This document shows, one piece after another, positions 1,814 through 29,165 of a stretch of 36,717 nucleotides of DNA (positions within the stretch are counted from its first letter, which is position 1; the number at the start of each line of letters is the position of its first letter). Location of the stretch: NCBI GenBank assembly GCA_014879535.1, contig JACSRX010000063.1:1-36717 (forward strand). Reading direction: 5' to 3'. Source of the stretch: Chthoniobacterales bacterium (GTDB lineage Bacteria; Verrucomicrobiota; Verrucomicrobiia; Chthoniobacterales; JACTMZ01). Below the pieces are notes generated by a model. The model was not told where the DNA came from. It ran no database searches and saw nothing but the letters and a program-made list of their open reading frames with translations. Position numbers and translations under genes: made by a program.

Positions 1814-3895
1814 TCACGGCTTTCCCTTCAGAACGTGCTCGCGCATCTGACGGTAAAGCGGGGCGAAGCGGCCGCTGTTCTTGATGCCGTCCTCGGCCAG
1901 CGTCAAGGCCTCCTTGGTTTGTCCCGTCTGCACATAGGACACAATGAGGGCCTGATCGGTGGCCACCAGATCCTCGGCGGACATCTTGGGTCTCGCGCTG
2001 ACGAGATAGGGAATGGCCTCGGCCCATTCCCCACGCATCTGGTGCAGGCGACCGACATAGCGCTCGGTCAGGCCGCTTTCCGAGAAGCCGTGGGCGAGGA
2101 GAAACCGGCCCTGCGCCATCGCCTCCGCGGCCTCGGCCCGGTCGCTTTCCGTGAGGGAACCATGGAGTTTCTGGCGGCAGGCCAGCGTGAAATAGACATA
2201 TTCGAGGTACCACGACGTGTAGTCCGGCACCTGACGTGACGCCAATTCGTAGAGTGGAAGCGCTTCCTCCGCGTTGTTCTCGCGCAGCAGCACGCGGGCC
2301 ACCATGCCGGTGAGCGGACGCAATCCGCCGGCATGGGGCTTGAACGTCTGCCATTCGTGGGCGGATTTCAGGACCGCAGGAGGCATTTCCTCCTCCGCCT
2401 CCCTGCAGGCCTGCTCGAAGCGGGTGAAGGCCTCCGGGTTGGTCTTGCGCATGAACGGAACGCCGAAGAGCACCTTCAGGGTGTGATTCACGCGGTAATC
2501 GTCGTAAAAATTCGCACCGAGCTTTTCGGCGTAGTCCTCGTCGTCACCCACCCTCGTGAGGTCATCCGGCGCGAGTTGCAGGGGCGCGGGAAGGTTGGCC
2601 ATGGCCCCGATCATGGATCTCGCCGCCCGCGCCTGCCCGGCCAGGGAAAGATGCACGTGGTCATCCAGCAAATCCCAGCCCGTGGCTCCATCCGGCGTTT
2701 CCTTCCGGAAAATTTCCGCCACGTCGCAAAGCACCGCCCCCTTGGTCAGCGCCGTGTTGCGGATCGCCTGTTCGGTGAGGGAAACCGGGCGCCACGGCAT
2801 CGTGTCGAGATCGCGCGCCTCAAGGAACGCCGTGCGCGCCAGCTCAGGCTGCCCCGCATCCGCCAGCACCTTCCCAAGAAGAAAACGGGCGCGTGCATGG
2901 CGCGGCGCAAGTTGGGTGGCTTCACGCAGAAGATTGACCGCCCGCGTCGGATCATCCCGCTCGGCGGCCATCACCGCCTCTGCAAGAAGACGGCGCAATT
3001 CCTTCAACTGCGCCTCGTCCAACCCGTTGGTGTCGTCCTCGCCGAGCGGCGCAAGCCCCGACTCATTGCTCGCCGTGGTACACACGAGGGCCGGGACGCC
3101 CGCGGCCCGGATCTCGTCGAGCATCACGCCGAGGTTGGTTGCGAGATTGCGCGCCGCCGACTCGCGCAGCGGGGAGTCCGCCGGAATGAACGTGCGACCG
3201 ATCATCTGCTCCATCAAGGTCCGGTTCTCGTCCGCCTTCCCGTAGAGCCAGCCGTCGAGAACCTGCACCAAGGCGAGCCCGCGTGCGGCGCGCATCAAGC
3301 GCAATGCCCATGGAGGGAGCGAACCCGCCGCATTGATCGAGGCCGTGCCGTAGGCGCCGAAGAACTCGTTGTTCCCCGTGTAGAACACGAACAGATCGGG
3401 CGAGAACTTCAAGGCGTCGCGCACGAGATAAACCAGCGGAAAACTCGCCACCGCCGTCGTGCCCGTGTCGATCACCTCGATCTTCTTGCCGGGCCACACA
3501 TCGGAGAGCATCGCCTTCAGGAATGCCCCCATGGAGAGGTTGCGCGGCTGCGGATAGCCCTTGGCCGCCGACTCGCCGATGATGAAGACGCGAATCGTGT
3601 CCGCCGGCTTCGGCATGAGGAAATTCGACTGCTCGGCGTAGCCCGGCCGCGTCGGATTCGCGAAGAAGTAGGGCTTCGACGCCGCAGGCTCGACAAGGCA
3701 GACCTGCTCGCCGGAAGGCAATGCGCCGACCTCGCGGAAAAACGGCGGATAGCCCCCCCAACCGAAACATCTCAGCGTGAACTCGGCGACCGCGAGCGCG
3801 AGGAATGGCAGACTGATCGTGATGACTGCAAACAGTCGGCGGCGTCCCGGCGACAGGGGCGCGGGTGGGGGTGCAGGCTTTTTCTTATTGGCCAT
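1814..3895 (-). CDS. Membrane-anchored SGNH/GDSL hydrolase-like protein with TPR insertion and TPR tail
   Basis: This is a 693-residue protein with a basic N-terminus and one membrane helix at about residues 20-40, probably placing the rest outside the cytoplasm. SGNH blocks are visible: GES at 107-109 (nucleophile Ser109), GNNE at 174-177 (Asn176 of block III) and DHVH at 412-415 (Asp412/His415, block V). Between blocks III and V, at about 295-365, is a TPR-like helical stretch with ARARFLLGKVLADAG and a following helix; more TPR-like helices fill residues 520-690. SGNH proteins deacylate or transfer acyl groups, often on polysaccharides or lipids; the substrate here is unknown. A related gene lies at 4850-6682 with a PEP-CTERM gene between them, which suggests envelope or exopolysaccharide modification (inference). 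The long antisense reading frame over it is a GC artefact. Confidence 0.82.
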   Translation of the reverse strand: MANKKKPAPPPAPLSPGRRRLFAVITISLPFLALAVAEFTLRCFGWGGYPPFFREVGALPSGEQVCLVEPAASKPYFFANPTRPGYAEQSNFLMPKPADTIRVFIIGESAAKGYPQPRNLSMGAFLKAMLSDVWPGKKIEVIDTGTTAVASFPLVYLVRDALKFSPDLFVFYTGNNEFFGAYGTASINAAGSLPPWALRLMRAARGLALVQVLDGWLYGKADENRTLMEQMIGRTFIPADSPLRESAARNLATNLGVMLDEIRAAGVPALVCTTASNESGLAPLGEDDTNGLDEAQLKELRRLLAEAVMAAERDDPTRAVNLLREATQLAPRHARARFLLGKVLADAGQPELARTAFLEARDLDTMPWRPVSLTEQAIRNTALTKGAVLCDVAEIFRKETPDGATGWDLLDDHVHLSLAGQARAARSMIGAMANLPAPLQLAPDDLTRVGDDEDYAEKLGANFYDDYRVNHTLKVLFGVPFMRKTNPEAFTRFEQACREAEEEMPPAVLKSAHEWQTFKPHAGGLRPLTGMVARVLLRENNAEEALPLYELASRQVPDYTSWYLEYVYFTLACRQKLHGSLTESDRAEAAEAMAQGRFLLAHGFSESGLTERYVGRLHQMRGEWAEAIPYLVSARPKMSAEDLVATDQALIVSYVQTGQTKEALTLAEDGIKNSGRFAPLYRQMREHVLKGKP

Positions 3896-25728: not shown

Positions 25729-25764
25729 CGCCCCGACTGCAACAGTTTCCCCAAAAAGGGGGCA

Positions 25765-26028
25765 GGCCACCTTGCCAAGGACAGCGGCACCCTCCAAGGA
25801 CGCCGCACCATCCGCGGCGGACGCGTGGCTGTGCGCAACGTGCTTTACATGGCCGCGGTGGCCGCCAGCCGTTGGAACCCCATCCTGCGCAACTTCTACC
25901 AGCGCCTGATCGCCAAAGGCAAACCGGCCAAGCTCGCCCTCACCGCCGTCATGCGCAAACTCATCGTCCTACTCAACCGCCTCGCTGCTAACCCCAATTT
26001 TGCCTTGCGTGAGCAACACTGTTGCTGA
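25765..26028 (+). pseudogene. IS110/IS116-type transposase, C-terminal remnant
   Basis: The frame from about 25765 to the TGA at 26026-26028 encodes the C-terminal signature of IS110-family transposases: DSGTLQGRRTIRGGR, VRNVLYMAAVAASRWNP, FYQRLIAKGKPAKLAL and VMRKLIVLLNRL. Only about 88 residues remain; the DEDD catalytic N-terminal part is missing and the sequence upstream is the start region of the GH13 gene. The last residues (ALREQHCC) are not transposase-like and run into the palindrome at 26012-26026. It is a dead fragment, evidence of past insertion next to the GH13 promoter. Confidence 0.85.
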
Positions 26029-26042
26029 CCCCTTTTCTGCCT
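26012..26042 (+). repeat. Left inverted repeat of the AT-rich cassette, with palindrome
   Basis: The palindrome AGCAAC-ACT-GTTGCT (26012-26026) is followed by TGACCCCTTTTCTGCC. The same order, palindrome then TGACCCCTTTTTGCTGCC, occurs on the minus strand at 26700-26667. The two copies face each other and enclose the gene at 26061-26600. This copy also supplies the stop codon of the transposase remnant. Confidence 0.7.
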
Positions 26043-26060
26043 TTTTGCCATTCGTTCGTA

Positions 26061-26600
26061 TCAATACCCTTGCGAGTTGTTGACCGCCCCCTTTTTTCCG
26101 TTGGCATTGGTCTGCCGTAACCATAGGAAAAATTTGTCTTTTAAAGTTTGAGTGTAAGCTAACCATACACCAAAATCTTCCGGCGCCCCATCTGAAAAAA
26201 TCAACTTAAGCTCATATATCTCACCTGACCTAATTATGTGATCTAAGTTTTGATCGGGACTAATAATGTAGCCATCTAAGCGCTTTGAGTCCAACCAACT
26301 TGCTTTGCTCGTTTGATCTATTGTGAATTCATTATCAATGACAATAACGCCATTTTTCAAAATGTTAATGACTCCTGTTGTGCCGTATGGCGCAGTTCCG
26401 CTATTATAAGGGACAGAAAGCAATAAATGATAGGCCTCTCCCCGCGGCGGAACCAGCTCAGCAGAGAGGACACTTGATTCTTCGCTCAAAAATAGCTGGG
26501 TAGACTCCAAGAATGGCGTATTGATAGCCATATAAAATACCAACAAAAAACCTCCAACGATCCCTAGAGTCCCAGTCCAAAAGCATCCCTTCATAAGCAT
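26061..26600 (-). CDS. Orphan AT-rich gene, putative membrane-anchored protein
   Basis: This encodes about 179 residues with an N-terminal hydrophobic helix (FWTGTLGIVGGFLLVFYMAI) and a hydrophilic remainder that looks mostly beta (VINILKNGVIVIDNEF, GEIYELKLIFSDG). I recognise no family. Base composition is unlike the neighbours: the stretch 26161-26220 has 24 G/C of 60, whereas the flanks are clearly GC-rich, and codons ending in A/T are common. It sits between inverted TGACCCC repeats. ATG 26600 and ATG 26594 are both possible starts; GTG at 26603 is less likely. It reads as a horizontally acquired gene. The topology suggests a bitopic protein with its C-terminal domain outside the cytoplasm, which is inference. 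Confidence 0.65.
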   Translation of the reverse strand: MLMKGCFWTGTLGIVGGFLLVFYMAINTPFLESTQLFLSEESSVLSAELVPPRGEAYHLLLSVPYNSGTAPYGTTGVINILKNGVIVIDNEFTIDQTSKASWLDSKRLDGYIISPDQNLDHIIRSGEIYELKLIFSDGAPEDFGVWLAYTQTLKDKFFLWLRQTNANGKKGAVNNSQGY

Positions 26601-26603
26601 CAC

Positions 26604-27088
26604 TTTTTGGCGGCAATTTTACATTCTGCGATCACGGCCATAGCCCAAGTGGCACATTGCGCAACCGGCAGCAAAAAGGGGTCAGTCAACAATTCTTGAC
26701 GTTTTCCCACTTCCGATTCCGATGCCCGGCAAAAGGCTGGCGGTGAAAGCGTTCGAAAAGGCGTTCCCGCCGCTCCAATTCCGTCAGTCTTGCGGGCAGA
26801 GAGGCCAAGACCATGCGGCGGGCGGCTTCGCACATGCGGACGCCCATAGGAAAGGCGCTCGGAACCGGAAAGCGCCATGGCAACCTCGGGCCGTGTGTCG
26901 ATGATGCCCTGCATTCCACCCACAGGTTATAGGTCCCCAAGGGCTGCGTCCAGCGGGCGATACAGGCCTCGTCGCAGCCGGGGCTGTCAAAGTAGGCGGG
27001 CAGCTGGGGCCAGCCGCTCCTACCGATCGACCACGAATAGCGGACTCGTCACGCCGCAGTCCGGCCCACGCGGGACGAAGGCGGGCGC
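26604..27088. other. 485-base stretch without a convincing gene
   Basis: It contains the right inverted repeat (26667-26700) and, beyond it, GC-rich sequence. A minus-strand frame is open from about 27045 to a TGA at 26688-26686 (including RWTQPLGTYNLWVE and a Leu/Arg-rich helix TELERRERLFERF). It has no good start codon (TTG at 26940 at best) and matches nothing I know. It could be the 3' remnant of a lost gene. Confidence 0.45.
26667..26700 (-). repeat. Right inverted repeat of the AT-rich cassette, with palindrome
   Basis: Read on the minus strand, the imperfect palindrome GTCAA-GAATTG-TTGAC (26700-26685) is followed by TGACCCCTTTTTGCTGCC (down to 26667). This mirrors the element at 26012-26042. 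The TGA of the repeat ends the minus-strand open frame that approaches from the right. Confidence 0.7.
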
Positions 27089-28252
27089 TCAGACTGTCCG
27101 GCAGAACTGCTCGATGCGGTCCAATCCGGTCTTGATGGTCTCGAGGTCCGCGGCGTAGCTGAGGCGGATGGTCTGGTCGTCGCCGAAGGCGATGCCGGGC
27201 ACAACCGCGACTTCCGCCTTGCTGAGCAGGCGGTCGGCGAAATTCGTCGAGCTGAGGCCGAACTTGGCAATGTTCACCAGCATGTAGAAGGCGCCGAGCG
27301 GCTTGACCGCCGAGAGGTTCGGAATGGCCGACACGCGCTCGAACATGTATTCGCGGCGGATGTTGAACTCGTCGCGCATGTCCGTGACGCACTGCTGCGA
27401 TCCCTTGAGGGCCGCAACCGCGCCTTTCTGGGCGAAGGAATTCGGACCCGACGTGCTGTGGCTCTGCAGGGAGTCGATCACCTTGGCGATTTCCTCGGGC
27501 GCGCCGAGGTAGCCAAGGCGCCATCCGGTCATGGCATAGGCCTTGCTGAAGCCATTGACTGTGATGGTGAGGTCGTAGGCTTCCTTGGAAAGGGACGCGG
27601 GGCTGATGTGCTCGACATCGTCGTAGATGAGCTTCTCGTAGATTTCGTCGGAGAGGATGAAGATGTCCTCGGTGAGCGCGACCTCGACGATGCCTTCGAT
27701 CTCGCTGCGGGTGTAAACCGAGCCGGTGGGGTTGCCGGGGCTGTTGAGAATGACCATCTTCGTCCGCGGGGTCATCGCGTTCTCGAACTCCTCGGCGGTC
27801 ATCTTGTAGGAGTTCTCGGCCTTGGTCTGGACGATGACCGGCTCGGCGCCGACGAGGCGGACCATGTCCGGGTAGCTCAGCCAGTAGGGCGCGGGGATGA
27901 CGACTTCATCGCCGGGTTCGCAGCAGGCGAGGATGGCGTTGTAGCAGGATTGCTTGGCGCCGTTGCTCACGATCACCTGGCCGGGCTTGTAATCGACGTT
28001 GTTGTCGGCGGCGAACTTCTCGCTGATGGCGGTGCGAAGCTCGGGCAGCCCGGAACTGGGCGTGTATTTGGTGAAACCTTCGCGGAGCGCCTCGATGGCC
28101 GCTTCCTTGATGTGCTCGGGCGTGTCGAAATCCGGCTCCCCGGCCCCGAATCCGCAGACGTCGATTCCCTCGGCGCGCATGGCCTTGGCCTTGCTGTCGA
28201 TGGCGAGGGTGAGGGAGGGACTGAGTTGCTGGGCGTGGGAAGAAAGTTCCAT
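27089..28252 (-). CDS. Aspartate aminotransferase (class I/II, subgroup Ib-like)
   Basis: This is a 387-residue PLP enzyme catalysing aspartate + 2-oxoglutarate = oxaloacetate + glutamate in the cytoplasm. The PLP lysine is Lys237 in NGFSKAYAMTGWRLGY. Other fold-type I residues are visible: NSPGNPTG (170-177) and SDEIYEKLIYD (Asp202, Tyr205). The YTPSSGLPELR segment (63-73) is typical of the Ib group (Thermus/Bacillus type), some of which also accept prephenate. The ATG at 28252 is chosen because homologues begin near LSPSLTLAIDSKAKAM; the 19 upstream codons are Pro-rich and unlike the family. It is the last gene of a four-gene minus-strand run, 40 bases after the NDK-like gene. Confidence 0.93.
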   Translation of the reverse strand: MELSSHAQQLSPSLTLAIDSKAKAMRAEGIDVCGFGAGEPDFDTPEHIKEAAIEALREGFTKYTPSSGLPELRTAISEKFAADNNVDYKPGQVIVSNGAKQSCYNAILACCEPGDEVVIPAPYWLSYPDMVRLVGAEPVIVQTKAENSYKMTAEEFENAMTPRTKMVILNSPGNPTGSVYTRSEIEGIVEVALTEDIFILSDEIYEKLIYDDVEHISPASLSKEAYDLTITVNGFSKAYAMTGWRLGYLGAPEEIAKVIDSLQSHSTSGPNSFAQKGAVAALKGSQQCVTDMRDEFNIRREYMFERVSAIPNLSAVKPLGAFYMLVNIAKFGLSSTNFADRLLSKAEVAVVPGIAFGDDQTIRLSYAADLETIKTGLDRIEQFCRTV

Positions 28253-28292
28253 TGTGGTTGTTGAAAAAAGGTGAACGGGGAATTTACGCGGC

Positions 28293-29165
28293 TCAGGAGG
28301 AGGATTCAACGAATCCTTTCAGCGAATTGTCCGCCACGCCCACGATGCCGATTTCCAAGAGCGCATTCTCGGGTGAGTCGGAGGCGTGGGCGGCGTTGAC
28401 CATGATGCTGGAGCCGAATTCCTTGCGGATCGTCCCCGGAGGCGCTTTCGCAGGGTCGGTGGGCCCGAGCACGGCCCGGATTTTGCCCACGGCACCGGGT
28501 CCCTCGAAAACCAGCGCGAGGATCTTGGCTGATCCCGGCTTGCCATGATCCTTCTCCGGGACGGCGGATGGTCTCTGGCCGCTCATGAACTCGACGATGT
28601 TCTCCCAATGGTCGCGGCCGGCCTCGGGGCCGAATTTTCCGATGAGGGCGTCGAGCACGGGGCCGTAGAACTTCATGCCCTGCGCCACGGACATGTGATG
28701 CACTTTCATCGCGACAAGGGGCAACCCGGTCCGCGCGAAGACATCCATCACGGCACCGGGACGGGTGCCGGGGAAGGCGAAGTTGTCGGGTTTGACCAGA
28801 ACCAGCGAGCGCTCGGCGCCAGAGTCCGCCGGTTGCGAAAGCGCATTCGATTGGGCCCCGGCGAGTTCCTTCAACCCACTGAGGATGTCCGCATCCGCCG
28901 CGGGGGCCGAAACCATCCCGTCACCGAGCATCCCGGCGAGCGAACCGGGGACATCGGCCGCTCCGACCGCCGCGGAAAGCTTCGCGGCTGCGTCCTCACC
29001 GCGGAAAACAAGCAGGCCGGCAGGCCCCTCGGGCCTTTCGACAAGTCCGGCCCAGACGAGATCAAGGCCTCCGGTGCGTGCCGTGGCTGCGGACAAAATC
29101 CATCCGGTCCAGCAGCGACGGAAAGCTTCGGGTTCGACCACCAAGTAAGAGAGGGTTTGCTTCAT
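28293..29165 (-). CDS. Tandem nucleoside-diphosphate kinase-like protein with degenerate first domain
   Basis: This is a 290-residue protein, twice the normal NDK length. The second half (about 118-290) is a recognisable NDK: LVLVKPDNFAF (Lys125), FEGPGAVGKIRAVLGPTDP, PPGTIRKEFG and VNAAHASDSPENA with the phospho-accepting His260. It has an insertion around 170-210. The first half (1-105) repeats the same order in eroded form: TLSYLVVEPEA in place of the Lys-Pro-Asp motif, LLVFRGEDAAAKLSAAVGAAD, then PGSLAGMLGDGMVSAPAADAD, where the His position is Ala. So one probable kinase domain is preceded by a pseudo-domain. The likely reaction is phosphate transfer from ATP to NDPs, but the altered segments leave activity uncertain. 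Start ATG 29165. Confidence 0.82.
   Translation of the reverse strand: MKQTLSYLVVEPEAFRRCWTGWILSAATARTGGLDLVWAGLVERPEGPAGLLVFRGEDAAAKLSAAVGAADVPGSLAGMLGDGMVSAPAADADILSGLKELAGAQSNALSQPADSGAERSLVLVKPDNFAFPGTRPGAVMDVFARTGLPLVAMKVHHMSVAQGMKFYGPVLDALIGKFGPEAGRDHWENIVEFMSGQRPSAVPEKDHGKPGSAKILALVFEGPGAVGKIRAVLGPTDPAKAPPGTIRKEFGSSIMVNAAHASDSPENALLEIGIVGVADNSLKGFVESSS

What the first reader, a model, noticed from the sequence alone, without database searches (positions are those of the whole stretch)
26012..26700. AT-rich orphan gene enclosed by facing inverted repeats with adjacent palindromes
Left: palindrome AGCAAC-ACT-GTTGCT then TGACCCCTTTTCTGCC on the plus strand. Right, on the minus strand: palindrome GTCAA-GAATTG-TTGAC then TGACCCCTTTTTGCTGCC. 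Both have the order palindrome (outside) then TGACCCC motif (inside), and enclose one low-GC gene coding a membrane-anchored protein of unknown family. This looks like a small mobile or exchangeable cassette, next to an IS110 remnant. The enclosed gene is the only clearly foreign-composition gene in the window.
Basis: partly seen in the sequence, partly recalled or inferred. Interest (0 to 1): 0.72.

Follow-up and report, generated by a model that had tools for sequence, protein, structure and literature searches.

The report
IS110 end and REP around foreign gene
The two facing "repeats" are the scar of a jumping gene (IS110) that landed in a short palindromic repeat and, on the other side, an intact repeat of the same kind; they enclose a foreign AT-rich gene, possibly a stray immunity gene, but nothing shows that they move it as a unit.

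Summary
The sequence is as described, but the two units are not alike. Left: palindrome AGCAACACTGTTGCT is the last codons (E-Q-H-C-C-stop) of an IS110 transposase remnant and is the IS right end. IS110 relatives in the same order end ...CAGTTG|CT|GACCCC, and their bridge-RNA guide (GGGTCAG) pairs with that target. So TGACCCC here is core CT plus half of an IS110 target. Right: GTCAAGAATTGTTGAC-TGACCCCTTTT is a REP of RAYT (Y1 transposase) type; the same or nearly the same unit flanks a RAYT gene in a relative and occurs twice in another. IS110 insertion into REPs is known. Between them lies a 42% GC gene (window 64%) for a 180-aa membrane-anchored protein, absent from 57 relatives, with two distant relatives in the phylum. 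The debris on the right is the tail of an AbiEii-like nucleotidyltransferase operon. Facing REP or IS110-end pairs around single lower-GC genes recur in the order (Imm52; an Rhs tip plus small gene; an AT-rich membrane gene plus Rhs-core relic; a lipase-like gene). Most likely it is a foreign, possibly immunity-type, gene in a REP/IS110-rich variable spot. Mobilisation of the pair as a cassette is not shown; no empty site was found.

The parts
25754..25764 (-). degenerate REP-like motif (TGCCCCCTTTT), possibly the outward partner of the left unit
   Evidence: one mismatch to TGACCCCTTTT; repeat D1, 84% to the right unit
25765..26025 (+). IS110-family transposase remnant (C-terminal ~90 residues), ends ...NPNFALREQHCC; stop codon TGA at 26026-26028
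   Evidence: translation; NF033542 IS110 1.1e-10, PF02371 4.4e-7; relatives 40-70% identical
26012..26026 (+). left 'palindrome' = IS110 right end (codons E-Q-H-C-C-stop), core dinucleotide CT at 26025-26026
   Evidence: junction comparison with relatives
26025..26036 (+). CT core plus right half of the IS110 target, a REP-like GACCCCTTTT
   Evidence: same junction in L077, L078, L079, L085, L086; guide GGGTCAG complementary to CTGACCC
26074..26096 (+). degenerate REP half-site overlapping the 3' codons of the orphan gene
   Evidence: 20 of 23 complementary to 26673-26695
26061..26603 (-). orphan gene, 180 aa, one N-terminal membrane segment plus predicted beta-rich domain, GC 0.42
26674..26700 (-). 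RAYT-type REP: 16-nt palindrome (26685-26700) followed by TGACCCCTTTT (26684-26674)
   Evidence: same unit in L112 (twice), near-identical in L113 (next to RAYT) and L114
26690..27045 (-). 3' remnant of a two-gene nucleotidyltransferase operon (AbiEii/DUF6036-like)
27089..28309 (-). right-hand neighbour: aminotransferase, conserved in the genus (88-91%); what lies downstream of it varies

Best explanation
A foreign AT-rich gene lies between two unrelated mobile-element traces in an intergenic spot next to a conserved aminotransferase gene. The left unit was made when an IS110-family element, guided by its bridge RNA, recombined at CT|GACCCC inside a REP-like repeat; most of the IS was later deleted, leaving its right end joined to the right half of the target. 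The right unit is an intact REP of a RAYT (Y1 transposase) family. The facing order arises because the target half lies outside an inserted IS and because REPs point away from the RAYT that made them, so DNA between two such insertions sees both motifs pointing inward. Shown: identity of the IS110 end, the IS110 target preference and guide pairing in relatives, the REP identity of the right unit, and the foreign composition of the gene. Inferred: that the left target was itself a full REP, and that the gene is an immunity-type protein displaced from a toxin locus (about 35%).
For: IS110 C-terminus in frame into the motif. In IS110 copies of the same order the right end is ...CAGTTG|CT followed by GACCCC in L077, L078, L079, L085, L086, GACCCT in L080 and GACTCC in L103, and by other sequence elsewhere. 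A 6-7-nt stretch upstream of the transposase gene is complementary to the right flank in L077, L078, L079 and, with other targets, in L081, L084, L089, L094, L095, L096 and L100. In L085 the joined flanks read ATTACAGACT|GACCCC, one arm of an inverted REP pair. GTCAAGAATNNTTGACTGACCCC occurs in three Verrucomicrobiota contigs: next to a RAYT in L113, as two direct copies in L112, singly in L114. RAYT genes have the motif facing outward at one or both ends in nearly all loci examined. IS110 into REP with a CT core is published (PMC1525189, PMC11208160), and RAYTs flanked by inverted REPs too (PMC2817692). The gene is absent from 57 relatives, with two distant relatives in 388 genomes of the phylum; one lies 6 bases downstream of a gene for a 1113-aa protein that starts with a signal-peptide-like stretch. 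Similar bounded loci carry Imm52, SUKH and Rhs tip or core relics.
Against: The left end of this IS110 is gone, so its own guide cannot be checked. The host genome has no Y1 transposase and no other exact motif. Facing pairs with cargo (window, L137, L141, L142, L154, L085, L148) outnumber outward pairs with non-transposase cargo, which a purely accidental arrangement need not give. The 23-nt partner at 26074-26096 makes the gene's borders more symmetrical than the model demands. Evidence for immunity is by company only.
Confidence: 0.72

Rival explanations
1. A REP-bounded mobile cassette: facing REP-type ends carry one foreign gene, often toxin or immunity, and are moved in trans by a RAYT or by IS110-type recombination at CT|GACCCC.
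For: Facing pairs around single lower-GC genes in L137 (Imm52, GC 0.48), L141 (GC 0.51), L142 (Rhs tip plus small gene, IS110 end on one side as in the window) and L154 (membrane gene GC 0.41 plus Rhs-core relic, 630 bp); L154 and the window show no outward partner for the right unit.
Against: Upstream halves differ within most pairs; of the 150 exact sites listed across the order (more were not listed) only the window has a facing exact pair within 3 kb; no empty site, no repeated cargo, no known enzyme for inward-facing REPs.
Confidence: 0.13
2. The gene is an integron cassette gene inserted or stranded outside an array.
For: All three genomes with the family carry integron integrases over the cut-off, the host too; the L105 homologue is bordered by attC-like hairpins (z -3.4 for one of two); the host array holds lower-GC orphan genes.
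Against: No attC-like site was found by a simple scan around the window gene, though that scan also missed sites judged attC-like by eye; the L106 homologue shows no attC-like neighbour by eye; the background rate of integrases was not measured.
Confidence: 0.1
3. Chance: an AT-rich gene between two short motif matches with no common history.
For: Short motifs; the order also has many isolated copies.
Against: Both motifs have identified, different mobile-element origins, and the only two exact copies in 3.17 Mb lie 650 bp apart.
Confidence: 0.05

Closest known systems
IS110-family insertion into REP elements (IS621, ISPpu9, ISPpu10, ISPa11)
   Same: IS110 transposase family (PF02371), CT core, REP-like target, RNA guide complementary to the target in relatives
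   Different: remnant only; the left end with the bridge RNA is lost; target of the type CT|GACCCC in Verrucomicrobiota
RAYT-associated REP and REPIN repeats
   Same: short palindrome plus conserved tail, flanks Y1 transposase genes in inverted orientation
   Different: tail TGACCCCTTTT instead of the GTAG/CGTC tags described (TGACC not found in the text of PMC3733652); the host has no RAYT
Orphan Rhs toxin-immunity modules
   Same: single AT-rich small genes, some with Rhs-core relics in other loci of the order, in variable spots
   Different: no Rhs relic in the window; the gene family has no Pfam match

Membership tests
IS110 insertion sequence | IS110 transposase with Transposase_20 C-terminal domain | tested here: met
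   C-terminal part only: PF02371 4.4e-7, NF033542 1.1e-10 (below that model's whole-protein cut-off), both on a 91-residue remnant
IS110 insertion sequence | right end with CT core joined to a specific target | tested here: met
   same or near-same junction in seven relatives
IS110 insertion sequence | bridge RNA guide matching the target | tested here: inconclusive
   met in relatives; the window copy has lost its left end
RAYT-type REP (right unit) | palindrome with constant tail, repeated and flanking a Y1 transposase gene | tested here: met
   L112, L113, L114; PF01797 3.7e-12 for the L113 gene
RAYT-type REP (right unit) | cognate RAYT in the same genome | tested here: not met
   no PF01797 match in the host assembly, 96% complete; so the unit is REP-like in form, but a REP without a local RAYT
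Mobile cassette with terminal inverted repeats | homologous ends | tested here: not met
   6 of 34 upstream positions shared; left end is IS110
Mobile cassette with terminal inverted repeats | empty site or second copy | tested here: inconclusive
   no second copy in 57 relatives or 388 phylum genomes; downstream of the aminotransferase gene the genus differs but no matching empty site
Polymorphic-toxin immunity protein | gene directly downstream of a toxin gene | tested here: inconclusive
   true for the L106/L128 relative only if the 1113-aa protein is a toxin; no toxin in the window
Integron gene cassette | attC at the 3' end of the gene | tested here: inconclusive
   none seen in the window, but the scan was insensitive

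The most novel reading that the evidence does not exclude
In Verrucomicrobiota of this order, inward-facing REP-type units (TGACCCC tails), sometimes capped by an IS110 end at the same CT|GACCCC site, form a cassette system that collects and exchanges single toxin-immunity or orphan genes, using RAYT or bridge-RNA recombinases in trans.
Probability: 0.12. Interest if true: 0.75.

Novelty: new member of a known kind. Interest (0 to 1): 0.38.

Why it matters
It explains a striking facing-repeat pattern by two known mobile elements and shows an IS110 group with a readable target code (guide GGGTCAG, target CTGACCC) that hits REP-type repeats in Verrucomicrobiota. The recurrence of REP- or IS110-bounded Rhs and immunity genes in the order suggests that such repeats mark exchange points of interbacterial competition genes, which can be tested with more genomes.

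Tried and rejected
Cassette with homologous ends: rejected as stated, since the left end is IS110. Phage or plasmid origin of the gene: no match in phages, plasmids or viral contigs. Known families for the 180-aa protein: none in Pfam, NCBIfam, PADLOC, PHROGs or PDB sequences. Fold: model pLDDT 50 with three sequences, so the PDB matches mean nothing. Close relatives in GTDB contigs: none. Debris on the right as a RAYT remnant: no; it is a nucleotidyltransferase operon tail. Several facing pairs look like chance matches inside coding sequence (L028, L135, L168) and were not counted.

Full report
What is there. The enclosed stretch is the only clear low-GC part of the window (gene 0.42, GC3 0.44 against 0.86 for the neighbour).

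Left unit. Frame 25753-26028 reads as the C-terminus of an IS110 transposase ending NPNFALREQHCC-stop (IS110 models). The 'palindrome' AGCAACACTGTTGCT is therefore coding sequence, and the TGA of TGACCCC is the stop codon. In 213 genomes of the order, IS110 relatives end in ...CAGTTG|CT or a close variant, after which the sequences diverge, except that GACCCC follows in L077, L078, L079, L085 and L086 and near forms in L080 and L103. Upstream of the transposase gene, L077, L078 and L079 carry GGGTCAG in a constant context; copies with other flanks carry the complement of their own flank at a like place (L081, L084, L089, L094, L095, L096, L100). L085 carries GGGTCAG in the same context too, as read from its left end. 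This is what bridge-RNA guidance predicts (PMC11208160). Not every copy showed such a match (none of 6 or more bases in L080, L086, L088, L092, L103 and a few others, some of them truncated). In L085 the left flank joined to the right flank gives one arm of an inverted pair GGGGTCAGTCTGTGATTCTCG / CGAGAATTACAGACTGACCCC, so at least there the target was a REP pair. Insertion of IS110 elements into REPs is published (PMC1525189).

Right unit. GTCAAGAATNNTTGACTGACCCC was found in three Verrucomicrobiota contigs of GTDB genomes: two direct copies in L112, one in L114, and in L113 directly outside the start of a 350-aa Y1 transposase gene (PF01797 3.7e-12), whose stop codon lies in the opposite copy. 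In nearly all RAYT loci examined the motif next to the gene points away from it, as published for RAYTs and REPs (PMC2817692). The window's right unit is thus a RAYT-type REP; the host itself has no Y1 transposase.

More copies. A third, degenerate copy at 25754-25764 points left, and a half-site at 26074-26096 pairs with the right unit over 23 nt at 87%. The latter overlaps the last codons of the gene.

The gene. 180 aa, one N-terminal membrane segment, beta-rich by a low-confidence model. No family in any library, no copy in 57 relatives, two distant relatives in 388 phylum genomes (22% identity over 135 residues to L105). L105 is a small lipoprotein-like gene between attC-like hairpins; L106 lies 6 bases downstream of a gene for a 1113-aa protein without informative domains. 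All three genomes have integron integrases, but no attC was seen near the window gene.

Right flank. 26690-27045 is the tail of a nucleotidyltransferase operon (AbiEii/DUF6036-like), next to an aminotransferase gene conserved in the genus, downstream of which the genomes differ. The spot is a variable junction.

Does the arrangement recur? Yes. In G046: L137 has facing units around an Imm52 gene (GC 0.48; Pfam 2.6e-19), beside SUKH and DUF7919 genes and a RAYT; L141 around a gene of GC 0.51 that looks lipase-like by eye (no Pfam match); L142 has a REP on one side and an IS110 right end on the other, as in the window, around an Rhs tip (TIGR03696 1.4e-9) and a small gene. In G088, L154 has same-type facing units 630 bp apart around a 41% GC membrane gene and an Rhs-core relic (weak match, 0.0085). 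Outward pairs in the same set mostly enclose RAYT or IS110 or are short. This makes toxin-immunity cargo a reasonable guess for the window gene and keeps the cassette idea alive, but facing pairs are also what two neighbouring outward-pointing elements produce. The loci were chosen from motif hits, in part by eye, so these counts are not a fair statistical sample.

Conclusion. The units are an IS110 right end on a REP-like target, and a REP. The gene between them is foreign and may be an immunity-type orphan. Movement of the whole as a cassette is possible but unproven; the empty-site test could not be done with the genomes at hand.

Noticed in passing
L077, L078, L079, L081, L084, L089, L094, L095, L096, L100: IS110 elements of this order show a readable right target guide upstream of the transposase gene, complementary to their own right flank, so targets can be predicted from sequence.
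   Followed up: partly
L137 (G046:C73): Three AT-rich small genes (Imm52, SUKH, DUF7919) around a RAYT, separated by TGACCCC units of two types on 5 kb.
   Followed up: partly
L125 (host contig C38:1-4237): Host integron: integrase at 1983-3392 and four small genes of GC 0.47-0.57 facing away, separated by attC-like sites.
   Followed up: partly
window 26690-27045: Truncated AbiEii/DUF6036-like nucleotidyltransferase operon tail whose stop codon lies in the REP palindrome.
   Followed up: yes
L011, L012, L015, L016, L130, L131, L138, L139, L141: A second unit type, about CTTAAnTnAGnGCCATTC-n4-CTGACCCCTTTT, often at contig ends, so probably the end of a multicopy element.
   Followed up: no
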